From assembly GCA_001766655.1 (NCBI GenBank), contig MJCC01000004.1:331377-395376 (forward strand): 64,000 nt of DNA. Reading direction: 5' to 3'. The position numbers and the translations under genes are program-made. Of the stretch, positions 57,848-63,999 are shown piece after piece. The notes below the pieces were generated by a model. That model searched no databases. It was not told the origin of the DNA and saw only the letters and a program-made list of their open reading frames with translations. Source of the stretch: Phytomonas francai. Taxonomy: Eukaryota; Euglenozoa; Kinetoplastea; Trypanosomatida; Trypanosomatidae. Positions within the stretch are counted from its first letter, which is position 1. Every line of letters starts with the position of its first letter.

Positions 57848-59374
57848 ATGACTTTTAATCCGCGAGTGGGGTTACTGTATAATGCTATGCATCCAAGCTC
57901 GGGGAAGGGTGTTGTCTTCATGCGGCATCTTCGATCCCCCATAGCGACAGCCCTTCCGTCATTGCAAAGGACGTCGGGGGCTGTGGGGGCGCCTGTTTAC
58001 CTTTTTGCAGCTCGGCATCGCCTGACCAACGCAAGCATCCTCACTAACATCAAAGAGATGGCAAACGAAAAGAATGACAACACGTGCAAGCTTGTTTATG
58101 CGCGCCGTCGCCAGGAAGACGCCATTGCGTTCGCTATAAAGGAGAAGGAGCTTCTTACCGAGAAGGCGAAGCGGCATCTAAAGGATGAGGAGGAAAAGGA
58201 GCAGGAGAAGGCGAAAGAGGAGGCTCTCATTGCTGAGGCCGCCGCGCTTGGCGGACCGGCTGCGGCTGAGGAAATGCGGAAAAAAATAGCGTCCGATCGC
58301 AGCAAATACTTGCGTTCCGTCGACGCCTTTGGGGACAAGAGCGTCCACCTCCAGCACACCTTCACCGGCTTCGCCGAAAACCGCATCATCCAGTGGTGGG
58401 AGCACCTGTACTGGAACTACCTTCGCTACTTCTTCACACAGGAGGTCCTCATCGCGAAGGACCGCTTTGGCAACAAGTTCACGGTGACCTGGCAGTTTAT
58501 CAAAGGGCGCCAGGAGCAGCGCCGGATGTACCGCCGGGACAGCAATAAAAAACACCAGCCCTACGGCGCCCTCGCGACGGACGACCGGCTGTGGGAGCGG
58601 TGGATGCGGAGCCACCGCGCGGACCCCCCCAGCGTCGCCGAGGAGGAGTACCTACGCCACTACAAGCGGGAGTTCTTCGGGCCAATGGTCCTCGACGACG
58701 AGGAGGTCGAGGACTCCATGATGCGCCTGCTCGCGCACATGAACCGCTCCCAGGCGCTCTTTCAGGAGTTGGACGAGGATCAGGATTACGGTGACGCCCA
58801 GCGGGCCGCGAAGCCGCTGCGCGAGACGGAGCGCAAGCCAGGGGACGAGATGAAGGCCAAGGCGAAGAAGGGCGCGACCTGGACGCTCGGGTTCGTCCGT
58901 GGCGACCTCTTCTACAACGAGGAGGAGACCCAGGTCATGCGAAATGAGCTTGGGCACATCTTCCGGAACATGGAGTGGCAGGCGCTGGAGTACAAGAGGC
59001 AGGTGCGCACGAACAAGGGCCAGCACCCGCGCGGGAAGCCCGCGGAGGGCACCACCGACCCCAACGCCCCGGACGGCGAGCCGCTGAAGCACTACTGGCA
59101 TCGCACGGACTTGGATGTCCCCTACCACGACGCGGTGTCGGACCTCAGCACGCCCGAGCTGGAGCGCCTGCGCATCGAGTCCGACCAACTCGAGGACGAG
59201 CGGCTGGCCATTCGCAAGGAACTGGGGCTGACGGATCTGGGGGATATGCGGGAGGGCCGGGACCCCATCCAGCAGGACCACGCCCCGTTCCAGCCGCCGC
59301 CGGTGTCGAAGCACTGGAAGCCAAAATGCTGGGAGGAGGCGTGGGGGACCGGCGCCGGAGGGATGTTTTGCTGA
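57848..59374 (+). CDS. Mitochondrial protein with NDUFA12/NDUFAF2-like domain
   Basis: The product has 508 residues. The N-terminus (1-60) has Arg/Ser/Ala and no early acidic residues, compatible with import. A charged coiled coil occupies about 75-150. At about 196-265 the text 'VLIAKDRFGNKFTVTW', then 'RRMYRRDS', then 'LATDDRLWERWMRSHRADPP' repeats the order of the NDUFA12 (B17.2) and NDUFAF2 family: G/D-xFGNK(Y/F), Arg-Arg, then WxxWL...DPP. Those proteins bind complex I near its NADH arm. The domain is embedded in a much longer protein than the usual 145-170 residues. Domain assignment is by motif order. It is the last protein gene of the + array. Confidence 0.6.
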   Translation: MTFNPRVGLLYNAMHPSSGKGVVFMRHLRSPIATALPSLQRTSGAVGAPVYLFAARHRLTNASILTNIKEMANEKNDNTCKLVYARRRQEDAIAFAIKEKELLTEKAKRHLKDEEEKEQEKAKEEALIAEAAALGGPAAAEEMRKKIASDRSKYLRSVDAFGDKSVHLQHTFTGFAENRIIQWWEHLYWNYLRYFFTQEVLIAKDRFGNKFTVTWQFIKGRQEQRRMYRRDSNKKHQPYGALATDDRLWERWMRSHRADPPSVAEEEYLRHYKREFFGPMVLDDEEVEDSMMRLLAHMNRSQALFQELDEDQDYGDAQRAAKPLRETERKPGDEMKAKAKKGATWTLGFVRGDLFYNEEETQVMRNELGHIFRNMEWQALEYKRQVRTNKGQHPRGKPAEGTTDPNAPDGEPLKHYWHRTDLDVPYHDAVSDLSTPELERLRIESDQLEDERLAIRKELGLTDLGDMREGRDPIQQDHAPFQPPPVSKHWKPKCWEEAWGTGAGGMFC

Positions 59375-59871: not shown

Positions 59872-59877
59872 AAAAAA
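59872..59877 (-). terminator. Pol III terminator of tRNA-Arg
   Basis: A6 on + (T6 on -) lies directly behind the tRNA 3' end, the normal Pol III stop signal. Confidence 0.85.
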
Positions 59878-59949
59878 CATCCGTGACAGGATTCGAACCT
59901 GCAACCCTCTGATCCGTAGTCAGATGCTCTTCCATTGAGCCACACGGAC
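59878..59949 (-). tRNA. tRNA-Arg(ACG)
   Basis: A full cloverleaf of 72 nt. The acceptor stem GTCCGTG pairs with CACGGAT (G-U at the first pair). The D stem is GCTC/GAGC. The anticodon stem TCTGA/TCAGA encloses loop CTACGGA with anticodon ACG (read as ICG, Arg CGN). The T arm is GCAGG-TTCGAAT-CCTGT, and the discriminator is G. A box (TGGCTCAATGG) and B box (GGTTCGAATCC) are intact, and no intron is present. It lies head-to-head with the 7SL RNA gene about 100 nt away and probably supplies that gene's promoter elements. Confidence 0.96.
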
Positions 59950-60050
59950 ATGTCACCCGTTCAATAAGATCGCATTAAATAAGTACAATTATCAACTCGC
60001 GGTTTTCATATTAGCTTGGCTCAGTGCGGTAAGGAGGGGAGAGGTTAGCC

Positions 60051-60328
60051 GGAGCTCTTGCTCTGTAACCTTCGGGGGCTGTACAGGCTTAGTGGTGGTG
60101 CCCTGGGACGGTGAGGGGGATCCGCTGCGTTGACGTGGCGCCCTGCTTGGCTGTGTGTCGGTGCCGCCCGGGCCCCTGTAGAGGGGCTCTGGGGGCGCCG
60201 TTGAAGTAGGGGGACCGGGTTCAGACCGGAAACGGGGCAGCCCACCTCGCGCACGTCCGCCGTTGTAGGAACACGCCGCAGAGCATGTCGACCCTCGGTC
60301 CCCCCAGGGACCGTTGCGAAGCCTTTTT
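60051..60328 (+). ncRNA. 7SL RNA (signal recognition particle RNA)
   Basis: The SRP RNA scaffold targets ribosomes to the ER. The S-domain helix 8 is recognisable at about 60206-60250: 'GGTTCAGACCGGAAACGG' then 'GGCAGCCC', matching the universal SRP54-binding loop of eukaryotic 7SL (human has CAGGUCGGAAACGGAGCAG). The Alu-domain side shows 'CTCTGTAACC' and 'GGCTGTACAGGC' at 60061-60088, like the UGUAA/UGUA loops. Long-range pairing of CCCTGGG (about 60104) with CCCAGGG (about 60303) closes helix 5. A T5 run (60324-60328) ends it. About 278 nt fits trypanosomatid 7SL. The 5' end is uncertain by some 10 nt. Confidence 0.88.
60324..60328 (+). terminator. Pol III terminator of 7SL RNA
   Basis: T5 flanked by C at the predicted 3' end of the 7SL structure. 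Confidence 0.7.
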
Positions 60329-60837
60329 CCCGTAATGGGGAGGGGAAGGGGGGGGGGGGGGTTTGCCCTTCCCCGCCCGGCGTGTCGCTAGACCACATTG
60401 ATCCTCCCTCATGCGGCGAAGCTTCAAAGAAAGAAGAAGTGGGGAAAGAAGAAATTCAGAAATGCAACCACCTGAAAAAGGGAACAAATACAAAAAAAAA
60501 CGATCGGTTTTCTGCATGCGCTTCATCATTAGTTTTTTTTTTCTCCTTTTGTAGAAACCCCACGCGCATTGTCGCTTCGTCTATTTCCATCATGGCAATA
60601 AATGTTACACGTTTGACGCGTCAAATTTTCATCATGGAAAGTTCATGAAAAGTAATTTCACATCACACCGTTTTATACAAATTCAGCGCTCGAGTTCCTT
60701 GCATTTTTTCTATATTACATGTCCCTTTCTTTAGCCCCAAAGGGTAAATATGCCTTTCTTAATGGAAGAGATGGGGTTGGGTAGTGCGCGCATATGGGTC
60801 TGGGTATCATGGCACCTCCCCACCCACACCACGACAA
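60329..60837. other. End of convergent strand-switch region, G14 run
   Basis: It contains a G-rich stretch with G4, then G14 at 60348-60361 directly behind the 7SL gene, then AT-rich 3' flank of the following - gene. No ORF is supported. Confidence 0.6.
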
Positions 60838-63800
60838 TCAGCCACCTATGAAGAGGTTACGAATAAAACCTGCGATAGCGTCGCCGCGGTGGAGTATGAG
60901 CGCGTCCGATGGATCGGCGTTTCCCTTTAAGATTGAGAGCGGAGTGAAATCGGACCCCTCCATGGAGCTCACACTAGGACTACCAAGATGGCTTACCTTC
61001 TCAAAGCTTTCTTCCGTGATATTCGTTTGGTGCGGCTGCGACGCCTGACGGATGGCTTTACCGTGCGAAAGCCGCATGCCCTGCCCGAACCTCAGGTTAT
61101 TCATGTTATTGGGAAAGTTCATGATATGGGTCTCAGAACTGGAGTTCGGCCCCTTTAATAGCCTGATGGATTCGCTTCTTCTTTTCCCCTCCCCCACGCG
61201 CCCTCGCAGATAGCTTGGAAATGCCATGGATTGCGGGAAAACAAGCTTCGGCGTCGAATTTAAAATACTTGTGCTTGCCATATCGACGTTTGGCGGTTTA
61301 TCTGATTCATTTAATTTGCTTTCAACACCTTGTTTAGTGATCGAAAGGCTGTCGCTGCAATGCAAGGTATAATTTTCCGGTGAAGGGGAGGCGGACTCCT
61401 CCTCTATACTGGCGTGATTAAAACTCTGCAAAGTGTTTTCCAGCGCTGTGAGAATTTCTCCTTTTTTTTCCACTCCTTTAGCGCTGCTTTTGCCTTTTTT
61501 CGGTTCTTGGAAATTATCTTTGCTCATGGAAGTCTCATCTAGCCCCTCCTTGGTTCCGGAGTGAGCTCCAATGGAAAAGAGTGTTGTAGTGCCGCGATGG
61601 GGGCTGCGGCTCATCTTCAGCGGCAAAGCTGCGAATGTTGGAATCACCCCGGACAGCGGTGACCTTTCGAGTCCAGAGTTCATGCGCAGATCCGGCGTCC
61701 GCACGGCTACGGAGGGGAGAGTGTGCTCATGGGGGCCGATATCTGGTTCACATTCCCTGGTCAAACCACGCTGGTGTTGGTTCTGAACGGAATTGTCAAC
61801 CAGAAATGCACTTGCTCGTGTGGCACCCGAATTTTGGCCCCCATTGGCATTGTGCGCGCGTTTGAGTTCAGTGGCATTTCTCTGCCAGTACTTGAAGACG
61901 GCATTCAGCAATGTGTCCCTCTCTCGAATCTTTTGCTGCATCTCCGAGATGCGACTGCGTGTCTCGGCTAGTTTCTTTTGCAGGACCCGATTCCGGTTCA
62001 GCAACCCGTTTAAGACATTGCTCACCTCGTTTTCTACCCTCGAACCTCGTGCGGGAGGGGGAACTTCAGAAGTCGTCAACGGCATCGGCTTCACGAGCGC
62101 CGGAGCGGGAAGGTACTGCGAATACGGAGCTAACAATTGCCCCTGCGTTTTTTCGGTGCCTTTTTCTTCATTCTGTTTCGGCGTATTAGTGAGACACAGA
62201 CGCGACGAGTATGCTTTCTTGTCATTATACTCTTTAGTTTTGTTGGGGCGGTCGAGAAAGAACGATTTGTCGTTCTCAAGTTGAACGTTCTCCCTCATTA
62301 CTCTGGCGACCTCTTGCCGCAGGGTCCGAAGCTGTTCAAGTAGGCCCATGTTGTGTTCTGCCGTCTTTGCCATCACCGCATTGGCCTCCAAAAGCTCCTC
62401 CATGAGATCGTCAGCGAGCTGAACGACCGGGACACTCGGGAGGGAAGGGAGCGGCTCCGGGTTGCCCGCGCAGGACCCACCGGAAAGATTCACATGTTGG
62501 GTGGGATCGGACGCATTCGCCTCCACGATGGAAGGACATGGTCTCGCGCCACTGGCGTTCGCTACGGGCGCAGTGTTGCCGTCCGTGCATCCATCGGGGT
62601 TATCGGTAGAGAAAGCAAACCGATCCGGCCCGCAGGTACCGCTCTGATTTTCTAAAATAGAGCTCCCTTGCGTAGGAAGGAGACAAGAGGGAGCCACTTC
62701 TATGGATACCGATGACTTTTGTATCGGAAGATCGCTGTTTGTCCGTCTTCGAAAGGCGCTCATCGTTTCGCTTTGTTGGAACGACAACGACGGCCGTGGG
62801 GTATCTTGCAAGCTGACGGAGAGCAGCGACACCGCCGCTTTCGTGGCTGCGGTGCCCATCGTGCTGACCGAGTGCAAAAAAGATTCCTCATCGTACGCGT
62901 GGGAGCTCTTACTTTTGTCCCCCGAATGGTTGCTTGATGGCGCGCGCTCACTTTTTACCGACTTTTCGATTTTGCTCCCCTCCAGCTCGATTTCTGTGGA
63001 CGGGGCTGATTCGAGCCGCTCTGCCGAGGCACGTAGGCGATCCTCCGTGCGCTGCGGCGTGGCACCGGCGGCGGTTTTCCTGCGCTTTTCCCTTGTGGAA
63101 GAGCTCCTCCTCTGCTCGATAGCCACGCCGTCACCCCTGTCGCCTTCACCTGCGTCGCCATTCCTTTCCACGGCACCACCGTCCTCATTTTTATCGCTAC
63201 TACTGGAAGTTAGGGGTGCTTCTTTTTGGTGGCGGTCCTGAACGCGCCGCGTTGTTGTTCGGCTTGTGCTGGGAGACTTGGATGGACGCAGCGCTGAGGA
63301 GGTCCTTGCGGATCCCAAATTTTTATACTGCCCTTTCTTTGCGTCTTCGGAAGGGGAGCGGACGGCGAAGATGCACGCGTCCTTTGTCGCCTTCTGGAAT
63401 CGCTTCTTTTCTTTCCACAACCATAGCGGACGCTCTTGGATGTGTTTCCGCAGCTCGCTTTTAATTTTTCGCTCCATTTTTATCAGCTTCAAGTCTTCCT
63501 CGTCGTTCTCGATATCACTGGACGGAGCATCCCTCTCGTTAAGAGGGAATCGGAAGAAATCACCCGAAACCTCGGGCTTTCGATCGCACTGAAGGTCCTT
63601 TTGGGCGGCCAAAAATTTCCTGAAGGGCTCCCCGAGGATCTCCCGGAGCTGCCGCAAACGCTGTCTCGAGGCCTGCGAGCCGCACTTCGGCTGCAGCGCG
63701 TACCACGTGATCACATTCCGCACCTCCTCCAGGCAGCACTTGAATCCCTCCTTCAGCTGCCGCATCCCCTTCTCCCGCCTCTCCATCTCCCGCGCCTGGT

Positions 63801-63999
63801 TCAAGGCGGCGGCCTCGGCGAGCTGTTCCCGCTTTTCTTTAAACCGCACGATCTCGCCGAGGACGCGCGCGCGCTCGCCGTGCAGGGTCCACTCCTCGGC
63901 CCGGTGGCGGCGCTCGAGGAGGGCCTCGGCGTCGGCGCGGAGCCCCGCGAGGTCGCCCCGGACCATCGCCGCGCGGCCCGCCATCCACGCCGCGGCCGC
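60838..63999 (-). CDS. Coiled-coil protein, unknown, probably cut by right window edge
   Basis: The frame has 1048 codons from ATG 63984 and remains open to the window edge through five more Ala/Trp codons, so the real start may be outside. The N-terminus (1-115) is a highly charged coiled coil ('EEWTLHGERARVLGEIVRFK'). A basic and Ser-rich disordered middle (200-520) follows. Two further coiled-coil segments occur at about 525-575 ('LMEELLEANAVMAKTAEHNM') and 650-700 ('NRVLQKKLAETRSRISEMQQ'). The tail is disordered. No enzymatic or membrane motif. It is likely a cytoskeletal or scaffold protein of a new - array. Function unknown. Confidence 0.8.
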   Translation of the reverse strand, partial: AAAAWMAGRAAMVRGDLAGLRADAEALLERRHRAEEWTLHGERARVLGEIVRFKEKREQLAEAAALNQAREMERREKGMRQLKEGFKCCLEEVRNVITWYALQPKCGSQASRQRLRQLREILGEPFRKFLAAQKDLQCDRKPEVSGDFFRFPLNERDAPSSDIENDEEDLKLIKMERKIKSELRKHIQERPLWLWKEKKRFQKATKDACIFAVRSPSEDAKKGQYKNLGSARTSSALRPSKSPSTSRTTTRRVQDRHQKEAPLTSSSSDKNEDGGAVERNGDAGEGDRGDGVAIEQRRSSSTREKRRKTAAGATPQRTEDRLRASAERLESAPSTEIELEGSKIEKSVKSERAPSSNHSGDKSKSSHAYDEESFLHSVSTMGTAATKAAVSLLSVSLQDTPRPSLSFQQSETMSAFRRRTNSDLPIQKSSVSIEVAPSCLLPTQGSSILENQSGTCGPDRFAFSTDNPDGCTDGNTAPVANASGARPCPSIVEANASDPTQHVNLSGGSCAGNPEPLPSLPSVPVVQLADDLMEELLEANAVMAKTAEHNMGLLEQLRTLRQEVARVMRENVQLENDKSFFLDRPNKTKEYNDKKAYSSRLCLTNTPKQNEEKGTEKTQGQLLAPYSQYLPAPALVKPMPLTTSEVPPPARGSRVENEVSNVLNGLLNRNRVLQKKLAETRSRISEMQQKIRERDTLLNAVFKYWQRNATELKRAHNANGGQNSGATRASAFLVDNSVQNQHQRGLTRECEPDIGPHEHTLPSVAVRTPDLRMNSGLERSPLSGVIPTFAALPLKMSRSPHRGTTTLFSIGAHSGTKEGLDETSMSKDNFQEPKKGKSSAKGVEKKGEILTALENTLQSFNHASIEEESASPSPENYTLHCSDSLSITKQGVESKLNESDKPPNVDMASTSILNSTPKLVFPQSMAFPSYLRGRVGEGKRRSESIRLLKGPNSSSETHIMNFPNNMNNLRFGQGMRLSHGKAIRQASQPHQTNITEESFEKVSHLGSPSVSSMEGSDFTPLSILKGNADPSDALILHRGDAIAGFIRNLFIGG

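What the first reader, a model, noticed from the sequence alone, without database searches (positions are those of the whole stretch)
59872..60328. Head-to-head tRNA-Arg / 7SL RNA pair at a convergent strand switch
The sequence shows a complete tRNA-Arg(ACG) on - with intact A and B boxes and, about 100 nt away on +, an RNA with the SRP helix 8 signature and a T5 end. In trypanosomes it is established that 7SL, U6 and U3 genes use A/B boxes of a divergent neighbouring tRNA gene as external promoter. For T. brucei 7SL the partner I recall is tRNA-Lys, while tRNA-Arg partners the U3-like RNA. A tRNA-Arg partner here would be a swap, informative for lineage and promoter evolution.
Basis: partly seen in the sequence, partly recalled or inferred. 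Interest (0 to 1): 0.75.

Follow-up and report, generated by a model that had tools for sequence, protein, structure and literature searches.

The report
tRNA-Arg beside 7SL in Phytomonas
In a plant-parasite relative of trypanosomes, a transfer-RNA gene sits back to back with the gene for the protein-export RNA (7SL) and very probably serves as its promoter, a known kind of arrangement with a different transfer RNA in the promoter role than in the sleeping-sickness parasite.

Summary
tRNA-Arg(ACG) lies at 59877-59950 (-) and a 7SL/SRP RNA at about 60048-60328 (+), head to head, about 98 bp apart, at a convergent strand switch. The genome is a Phytomonas, not a Trypanosoma, and this is the only 7SL match found. 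The geometry is the classical trypanosomatid one: box A starts about 106 nt upstream of the predicted 7SL 5' end, against 104 for U3-tRNA-Lys(TTT) and 103 for U6-tRNA-Gln(CTG) in the same genome. By sequence, U1 and U5 candidates also face tRNAs, and two U2 genes and a U4 face tRNA-like sequences. Best explanation: boxes A and B of the divergent tRNA gene act as external Pol III promoter (inferred). Relative to T. brucei (U3-tRNA-Arg(ACG), PMC2784804 passages; 7SL-tRNA-Lys, recalled) the partners are exchanged, but U3-tRNA-Lys is known from Leishmania and Leptomonas, so partner turnover is not new. A Phytomonas genome paper has a figure on tRNA-U3/7SL association (PMC3916237, legend only seen). 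An ordinary member of a known arrangement, useful for tracing partner turnover.

The parts
59877..59950 (-). tRNA-Arg(ACG) gene; nucleotide 1 at 59949; one of three copies with identical gene body found in the genome
   Evidence: ARAGORN; Rfam RF00005 66.3 bits; other copies at C30 and C5
59932..59942 (-). box A of the tRNA (TGGCTCAATGG); first base 106 nt from predicted 7SL +1
59889..59899 (-). box B of the tRNA (GGTTCGAATCC), first base 149 nt from predicted 7SL +1
   Evidence: offsets; sequence
59872..59877 (-). T6 run, presumed Pol III terminator of the tRNA gene
59950..60047 (.). 98-bp spacer between tRNA nucleotide 1 and predicted 7SL 5' end; best local alignment to the U1 candidate's spacer is about 10 bases
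60048..60323 (+). 7SL (SRP) RNA, about 276 nt plus terminal U's; only match found in the 17.4-Mb genome; 5' end predicted, not mapped
   Evidence: RF01856 92.2 bits at 60059-60296; single genome match (31 of 220 first-look candidates scored); fold; primer match
60324..60328 (+). T5 run, presumed Pol III terminator of 7SL
57848..59374 (+). last protein gene of the left unit, 508 aa, conserved in kinetoplastids
60838..63984 (-). first protein gene of the opposing unit, 1048 aa, only Phytomonas homologues found

Best explanation
This is the trypanosomatid composite Pol III promoter. Transcription factors assembled on boxes A and B of the tRNA-Arg(ACG) gene start the tRNA transcript on the - strand and also position Pol III roughly 104-106 nt on the other side of box A, so that 7SL RNA is made on the + strand and ends at T5. 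The pair sits between two converging protein-coding units, a common place for Pol III genes in this family. Shown here: both genes, intact boxes, T-run terminators, spacing, a single 7SL match, and similar geometry at other small RNAs of this genome. Inferred: use of the boxes as the 7SL promoter, which is reported for T. brucei and Leptomonas collosoma 7SL but not tested in this species.
For: Genes and boxes. One 7SL match in the genome. Box A first base to RNA 5' end: 7SL 106, U3 104, U6 103, U1 candidate 99. Upstream of the two U2 genes an A-like element and a B box lie at offsets 107/150 and 105/148; the U4 gene has a B box at offset 156. Published spacing is 104-106 bp (PMC4950102 passages), and the same passages say that boxes A and/or B control 7SL in T. 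brucei and L. collosoma. Of 14 head-to-head tRNA-tRNA gaps 11 are 66-78 bp, 1 is 93 bp, and 2 (218, 222 bp) hold the U1 and U5 candidates, whereas the small RNA-tRNA gaps are 98, 96, 95 and, for the U1 candidate, 91 bp.
Against: No expression or promoter data for this species. The 7SL 5' end at 60048 was chosen from the fold and by recalled resemblance to other SRP RNA 5' ends, so 106 is good to about 5 nt. One tRNA-tRNA pair (Thr/Arg, 93 bp) falls in the small-RNA range. The U1 candidate's 99 is off the published value, its 5' end being uncertain. The loose A-box pattern matched at several places upstream of each U2 (4 and 3) and I took the nearest; the strict B-box pattern did not match at U6, where the tRNA-Gln reads GGTTCGAGTCC by eye. 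PMC4950102 passages also say that not every gene needs every element: box A is dispensable for L. collosoma U4, box B for U6 in vitro.
Confidence: 0.9

Rival explanations
1. 7SL has its own internal and short upstream promoter, and the neighbouring tRNA-Arg gene is close only by chance or because Pol III genes cluster at strand switches.
For: Pol III genes do cluster: 66 tRNA genes in 25 loci plus the window. tRNA genes occur in 14 of 39 L. major convergent strand switches (PMC2695483 passage).
Against: Spacing is within a few bases of U3, U6, U2 and the literature value and differs from 11 of 14 head-to-head tRNA-tRNA gaps that are 66-78 bp. 7SL dependence on companion boxes is reported in two other trypanosomatids.
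Confidence: 0.05
2. The pair is mainly a boundary: the Pol III genes stop or insulate the two converging Pol II units, and the promoter link between tRNA and 7SL is secondary.
For: Convergent position. Pol II transcription of two converging units ends in a tRNA region on L. major chromosome 3 (PMC2695483 passages).
Against: Does not exclude the promoter role. U3 and the U1 and U5 candidates have the same kind of pairing inside tRNA clusters; whether those clusters are strand switches was not examined. No chromatin or run-on data available.
Confidence: 0.05

Closest known systems
T. brucei 7SL gene with divergent tRNA companion (Nakaar et al. 1994, recalled, not read; 7SL control by boxes A/B stated in PMC4950102 passages)
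   Same: divergent tRNA upstream; boxes A/B as extragenic elements; about 104-106 nt spacing
   Different: companion there is tRNA-Lys (recalled), in a large Pol III cluster (PMC2695483 passages); here it is tRNA-Arg(ACG) in a stand-alone pair at a convergent strand switch
T. brucei U3 gene with divergent tRNA-Arg(ACG) (PMC2784804 passages)
   Same: same tRNA species and anticodon, same orientation, similar spacing
   Different: faces U3 there; here U3 faces tRNA-Lys(TTT)
L. tarentolae, L. major and Leptomonas collosoma U3-tRNA-Lys pairs (PMC2784804 passages)
   Same: the U3 arrangement of this genome; in Leishmania within a ten-tRNA cluster with U1, here a ten-tRNA cluster with a U1 candidate
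   Different: no 5S gene was found here; the 7SL partner in these species was not given in the passages I could read
Phytomonas EM1/HART1 tRNA synteny figure (PMC3916237 Figure S7C, legend only)
   Same: same genus; the figure concerns tRNA genes associated with U3 and 7SL
   Different: the legend names L. major and marks a hypothetical 7SL promoter with '?'; the tRNA is not named in the legend

Membership tests
SRP (7SL) RNA, protozoan type | covariance match over the whole model above the gathering score | tested here: met
   RF01856 92.2 bits vs 65, model 1-228
SRP (7SL) RNA, protozoan type | expressed and bound by SRP proteins | not testable with these tools
   no RNA or binding data held
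tRNA-Arg(ACG) gene | cloverleaf, ACG anticodon, intact A and B boxes, T-run terminator | tested here: met
Trypanosomatid tRNA-companion Pol III promoter | tRNA or tRNA-like sequence upstream in divergent orientation | tested here: met
Trypanosomatid tRNA-companion Pol III promoter | box A about 104-106 nt upstream of the RNA 5' end | tested here: met
   106 with a predicted 5' end, uncertain by about 5 nt; reference value from PMC4950102 passages
Trypanosomatid tRNA-companion Pol III promoter | small RNA output depends on boxes A and/or B | not testable with these tools
   needs a reporter experiment
Trypanosomatid tRNA-companion Pol III promoter | element within the first about 21 nt of the small RNA gene (not needed by every gene) | not tested
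   described for snRNAs in PMC4950102 passages; I had no 7SL consensus to test against

The most novel reading that the evidence does not exclude
In the Phytomonas lineage a copy of the tRNA-Arg(ACG) gene became the 7SL promoter at a stand-alone site, apart from the U1/U3/tRNA type of cluster in which T. brucei and T. cruzi keep 7SL, so that two identical tRNA-Arg(ACG) genes now face two different essential RNAs (7SL and, by sequence, U1) while U3 faces tRNA-Lys: a reciprocal exchange of promoter partners relative to T. brucei.
Probability: 0.35. Interest if true: 0.35.

Novelty: new member of a known kind. Interest (0 to 1): 0.22.

Why it matters
It gives a partner map of Pol III small RNAs for one Phytomonas genome and shows the box A distance nearly constant while the identity of the tRNA varies. 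This supports the view that partner identity is a drifting, lineage-specific character rather than a requirement for one particular tRNA. The map is also a practical annotation aid: Rfam reported neither the U1 nor the U5 candidate, and missed U4.

Tried and rejected
Cross-species DNA comparison: the 22-base 7SL primer sequence had 0 matches in genome contigs and 0 in viral contigs, as expected for prokaryotic and viral collections. I had no kinetoplastid DNA other than G000, so conservation of the tRNA-Arg partner in other Phytomonas or in Leishmania was not tested.

U3 with the general Rfam model RF00012: best match in the genome 17.4 bits, E 0.87, rejected; RF01848 then gave U3 beside tRNA-Lys at 57.4 bits, cut-off 55. 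U4 and U5 by Rfam search of the genome: none at E up to 1 (the U5 search rang in no control genome either, so it shows nothing). U4 was found by a 15-letter pattern complementary to U6: 5 places, of which 1 lies in U6, 1 is accepted as U4, and 3 were dropped because no box B was matched upstream and, by eye, they do not continue as U4. 5S: none at E up to 0.001 (47 of 696 first-look candidates scored).

Protein checks that did not bear on the question: Pfam scan of ten ORFs, four of them without a family, among these both neighbours of the pair; solved-structure search of the 508-aa neighbour, 0 matches; PPR protein, 34 matches, none named as a trypanosomatid protein; DRC7, 6 matches, in line with its identification.

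Papers. PMC4950102, PMC11894013, PMC3916237, PMC2695483, PMC2784804, PMC3395564, PMC12421993, PMC6463643 and PMC3091756 were seen as found passages only. Ben-Shlomo et al. 1997 (PMC147140) is not held. Nakaar et al. 1994 is recalled, not read. Nine paper searches showed me no text that states a 7SL-tRNA-Arg pair; I saw listings and abstracts' beginnings, most subscription papers are missing from the library, and supplements could not be opened, so this does not show that it is unpublished.

Full report
What is there. ARAGORN finds one tRNA in the 64-kb window, tRNA-Arg with anticodon ACG at 59877-59950 on the - strand. cmscan of the window against Rfam gives two matches above threshold: that tRNA (66.3 bits) and Protozoa_SRP RF01856 on + at 60059-60296 (92.2 bits, gathering 65, E 5.2e-18) (same pair). 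The 7SL gene is followed by T5 at 60324-60328 and the tRNA by T6 on its own strand. A published forward primer for trypanosomatid 7SL, seen in a passage of PMC3395564, matches without mismatch at 60059-60080. The stretch 60048-60323 folds with z -2.06; 4 of 200 shuffles fold at least as well. That is modest support on its own; the covariance match is the strong evidence.

Where it is. The window lies in a 17.4-Mb, 37-contig genome. The DRC7 protein of the window is 81% identical to a Phytomonas sp. EM1 protein and 79% to one of Phytomonas sp. Hart1; the next best of the 101 proteins found is at 51% or less. The 508-aa neighbour is 90% identical to EM1 and 78% to a Leishmania protein. The organism is therefore a Phytomonas; the species was not identified. 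The left neighbour (57848-59374, +) has 45 homologues; the right neighbour (60838-63984, -) has 2, both Phytomonas, at 50% and 45% identity (candidates capped in both). The two units therefore converge on the pair. Beyond the window the held sequence reads N from C32:395377 to 405757; after it both strands have ORFs near the masked edge and then - strand ORFs only among those of 250 aa or more. This fits a - strand unit but is no proof. In EM1 the homologues of DRC7, the 508-aa and the 1048-aa protein are each listed with a contig of 877,237 bases, which suggests that the neighbourhood is conserved within the genus; the DNA between them was not available.

The rest of the genome. RF01856 has a single match in the genome (31 of 220 first-look candidates scored). 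The tRNA search gave 63 matches (63 of 504 candidates scored, so a lower bound). ARAGORN on 25 loci covering them plus the window gives 66 genes. U3 (RF01848, 57.4 bits vs 55) lies on C30 facing tRNA-Lys(TTT), and U6 (59.6 bits vs 44) on C37 facing tRNA-Gln(CTG), both divergent. Two U2 genes (84.6 and 84.2 bits) have no tRNA that ARAGORN recognises but a B box and A-like elements upstream, as published for U2 in other trypanosomatids. A U4 gene, found by pattern, starts almost like the L. major U4 primer printed in PMC6463643 and has a B box upstream. Candidates for U1 (C30, facing a second tRNA-Arg(ACG)) and U5 (C36, facing tRNA-Cys(GCA)) are by eye: an AAATTTTGG Sm-like site and stems on either side; Rfam did not report them at E up to 0.1. 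That 9-base site occurs 6 times in 264,914 strand-bases of the 25 loci, so it is not decisive alone. The support is that the two candidates lie in the only two of 14 head-to-head tRNA gaps longer than 200 bp, and in clusters of ten and four tRNA genes like those said to hold U1 with U3, and U5, in Leishmania (PMC2784804 and PMC2695483 passages).

Geometry. From the first base of box A to the RNA 5' end the distance is 106 (7SL, predicted 5' end), 104 (U3), 103 (U6) and 99 (U1 candidate, 5' end uncertain). For the U2 copies the nearest A-like element starts at offsets 107 and 105, the B box at 150 and 148; the loose A pattern matched 4 and 3 times there. For 7SL the B box begins 149 nt upstream. 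At U6 the strict B pattern did not match; the tRNA-Gln box reads GGTTCGAGTCC by eye. PMC4950102 gives 104-106 bp as the usual box A distance (passages). Head-to-head tRNA-tRNA gaps in the same genome are 66-78 bp in 11 of 14 cases, 93 in one, 218 and 222 in two, while small RNA-tRNA gaps are 98, 96, 95 and 91. The 7SL pair therefore belongs to the promoter-type spacing class.

Mechanism. For T. brucei and L. collosoma 7SL, and for several snRNAs, boxes A and/or B of the companion tRNA or tRNA-like sequence are reported to control expression, with differences from gene to gene in which box is needed (PMC4950102 passages). What can be checked in sequence agrees that the same holds here. The dependence itself is inferred.

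The swap. T. brucei U3 faces tRNA-Arg(ACG); L. collosoma, L. tarentolae and L. major U3 face tRNA-Lys (PMC2784804 passages). T. brucei and T. cruzi carry a 7SL gene in the large Pol III cluster that in L. major has a 5S gene in its place (PMC2695483 passages). In this Phytomonas, U3 faces tRNA-Lys in a ten-tRNA cluster with a U1 candidate, and 7SL stands alone with tRNA-Arg(ACG). Relative to T. brucei, with 7SL-tRNA-Lys as recalled, the two partners are exchanged, but each half fits a wider pattern of changing partners. The three tRNA-Arg(ACG) genes have identical bodies; their flanks look unrelated by eye, and the one pair of spacers that I aligned, 7SL against U1, shares about 10 bases. Two of the three face a small RNA (one of them by the U1 candidate) and the third faces tRNA-Met at 72 bp. 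Whether tRNA-Arg-7SL is shared with Leishmania or with other Phytomonas could not be tested. A supplementary figure of the Phytomonas genome paper deals with the topic, but only its legend was readable.

Verdict. A correct and careful observation of an ordinary arrangement, with a partner tRNA that differs from the best-studied species.

Noticed in passing
G000 C30, L050:2618-2860: A U1-like candidate faces a second, identical tRNA-Arg(ACG); Rfam does not report it.
   Followed up: partly
G000 C36, L056:2464-2757: A U5-like candidate lies in the 222-bp gap between tRNA-Cys(GCA) and tRNA-Leu(AAG); not reported by Rfam.
   Followed up: partly
G000 C10:251948-252097 and C15:108263-108412: Two U2 genes with similar upstream tRNA-like elements and similar near flanks.
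   Followed up: partly
G000 C22, L068 from 1499: U4 gene missed by the Rfam genome search, with a B box (tRNA-like) upstream.
   Followed up: partly
whole genome G000: No 5S rRNA gene found with RF00001; possibly an assembly gap or a limit of the search.
   Followed up: no
G000 C6 (L041) and C29 (L048, L049): A tRNA-Ser/Asp/Ala cluster occurs on C6 and on the 14-kb contig C29, which also has a tRNA-Ser at its very start; perhaps an unplaced haplotype or repeat.
   Followed up: no
window 60348-60361: A run of 14 G about 20 bases after the 7SL terminator (my note gave 15 and one base off).
   Followed up: no
window 60838-63984 (-): A 1048-aa protein gene with only Phytomonas homologues found (45-50% identity), apparently fast-evolving, across the gap from a well conserved neighbour.
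   Followed up: partly
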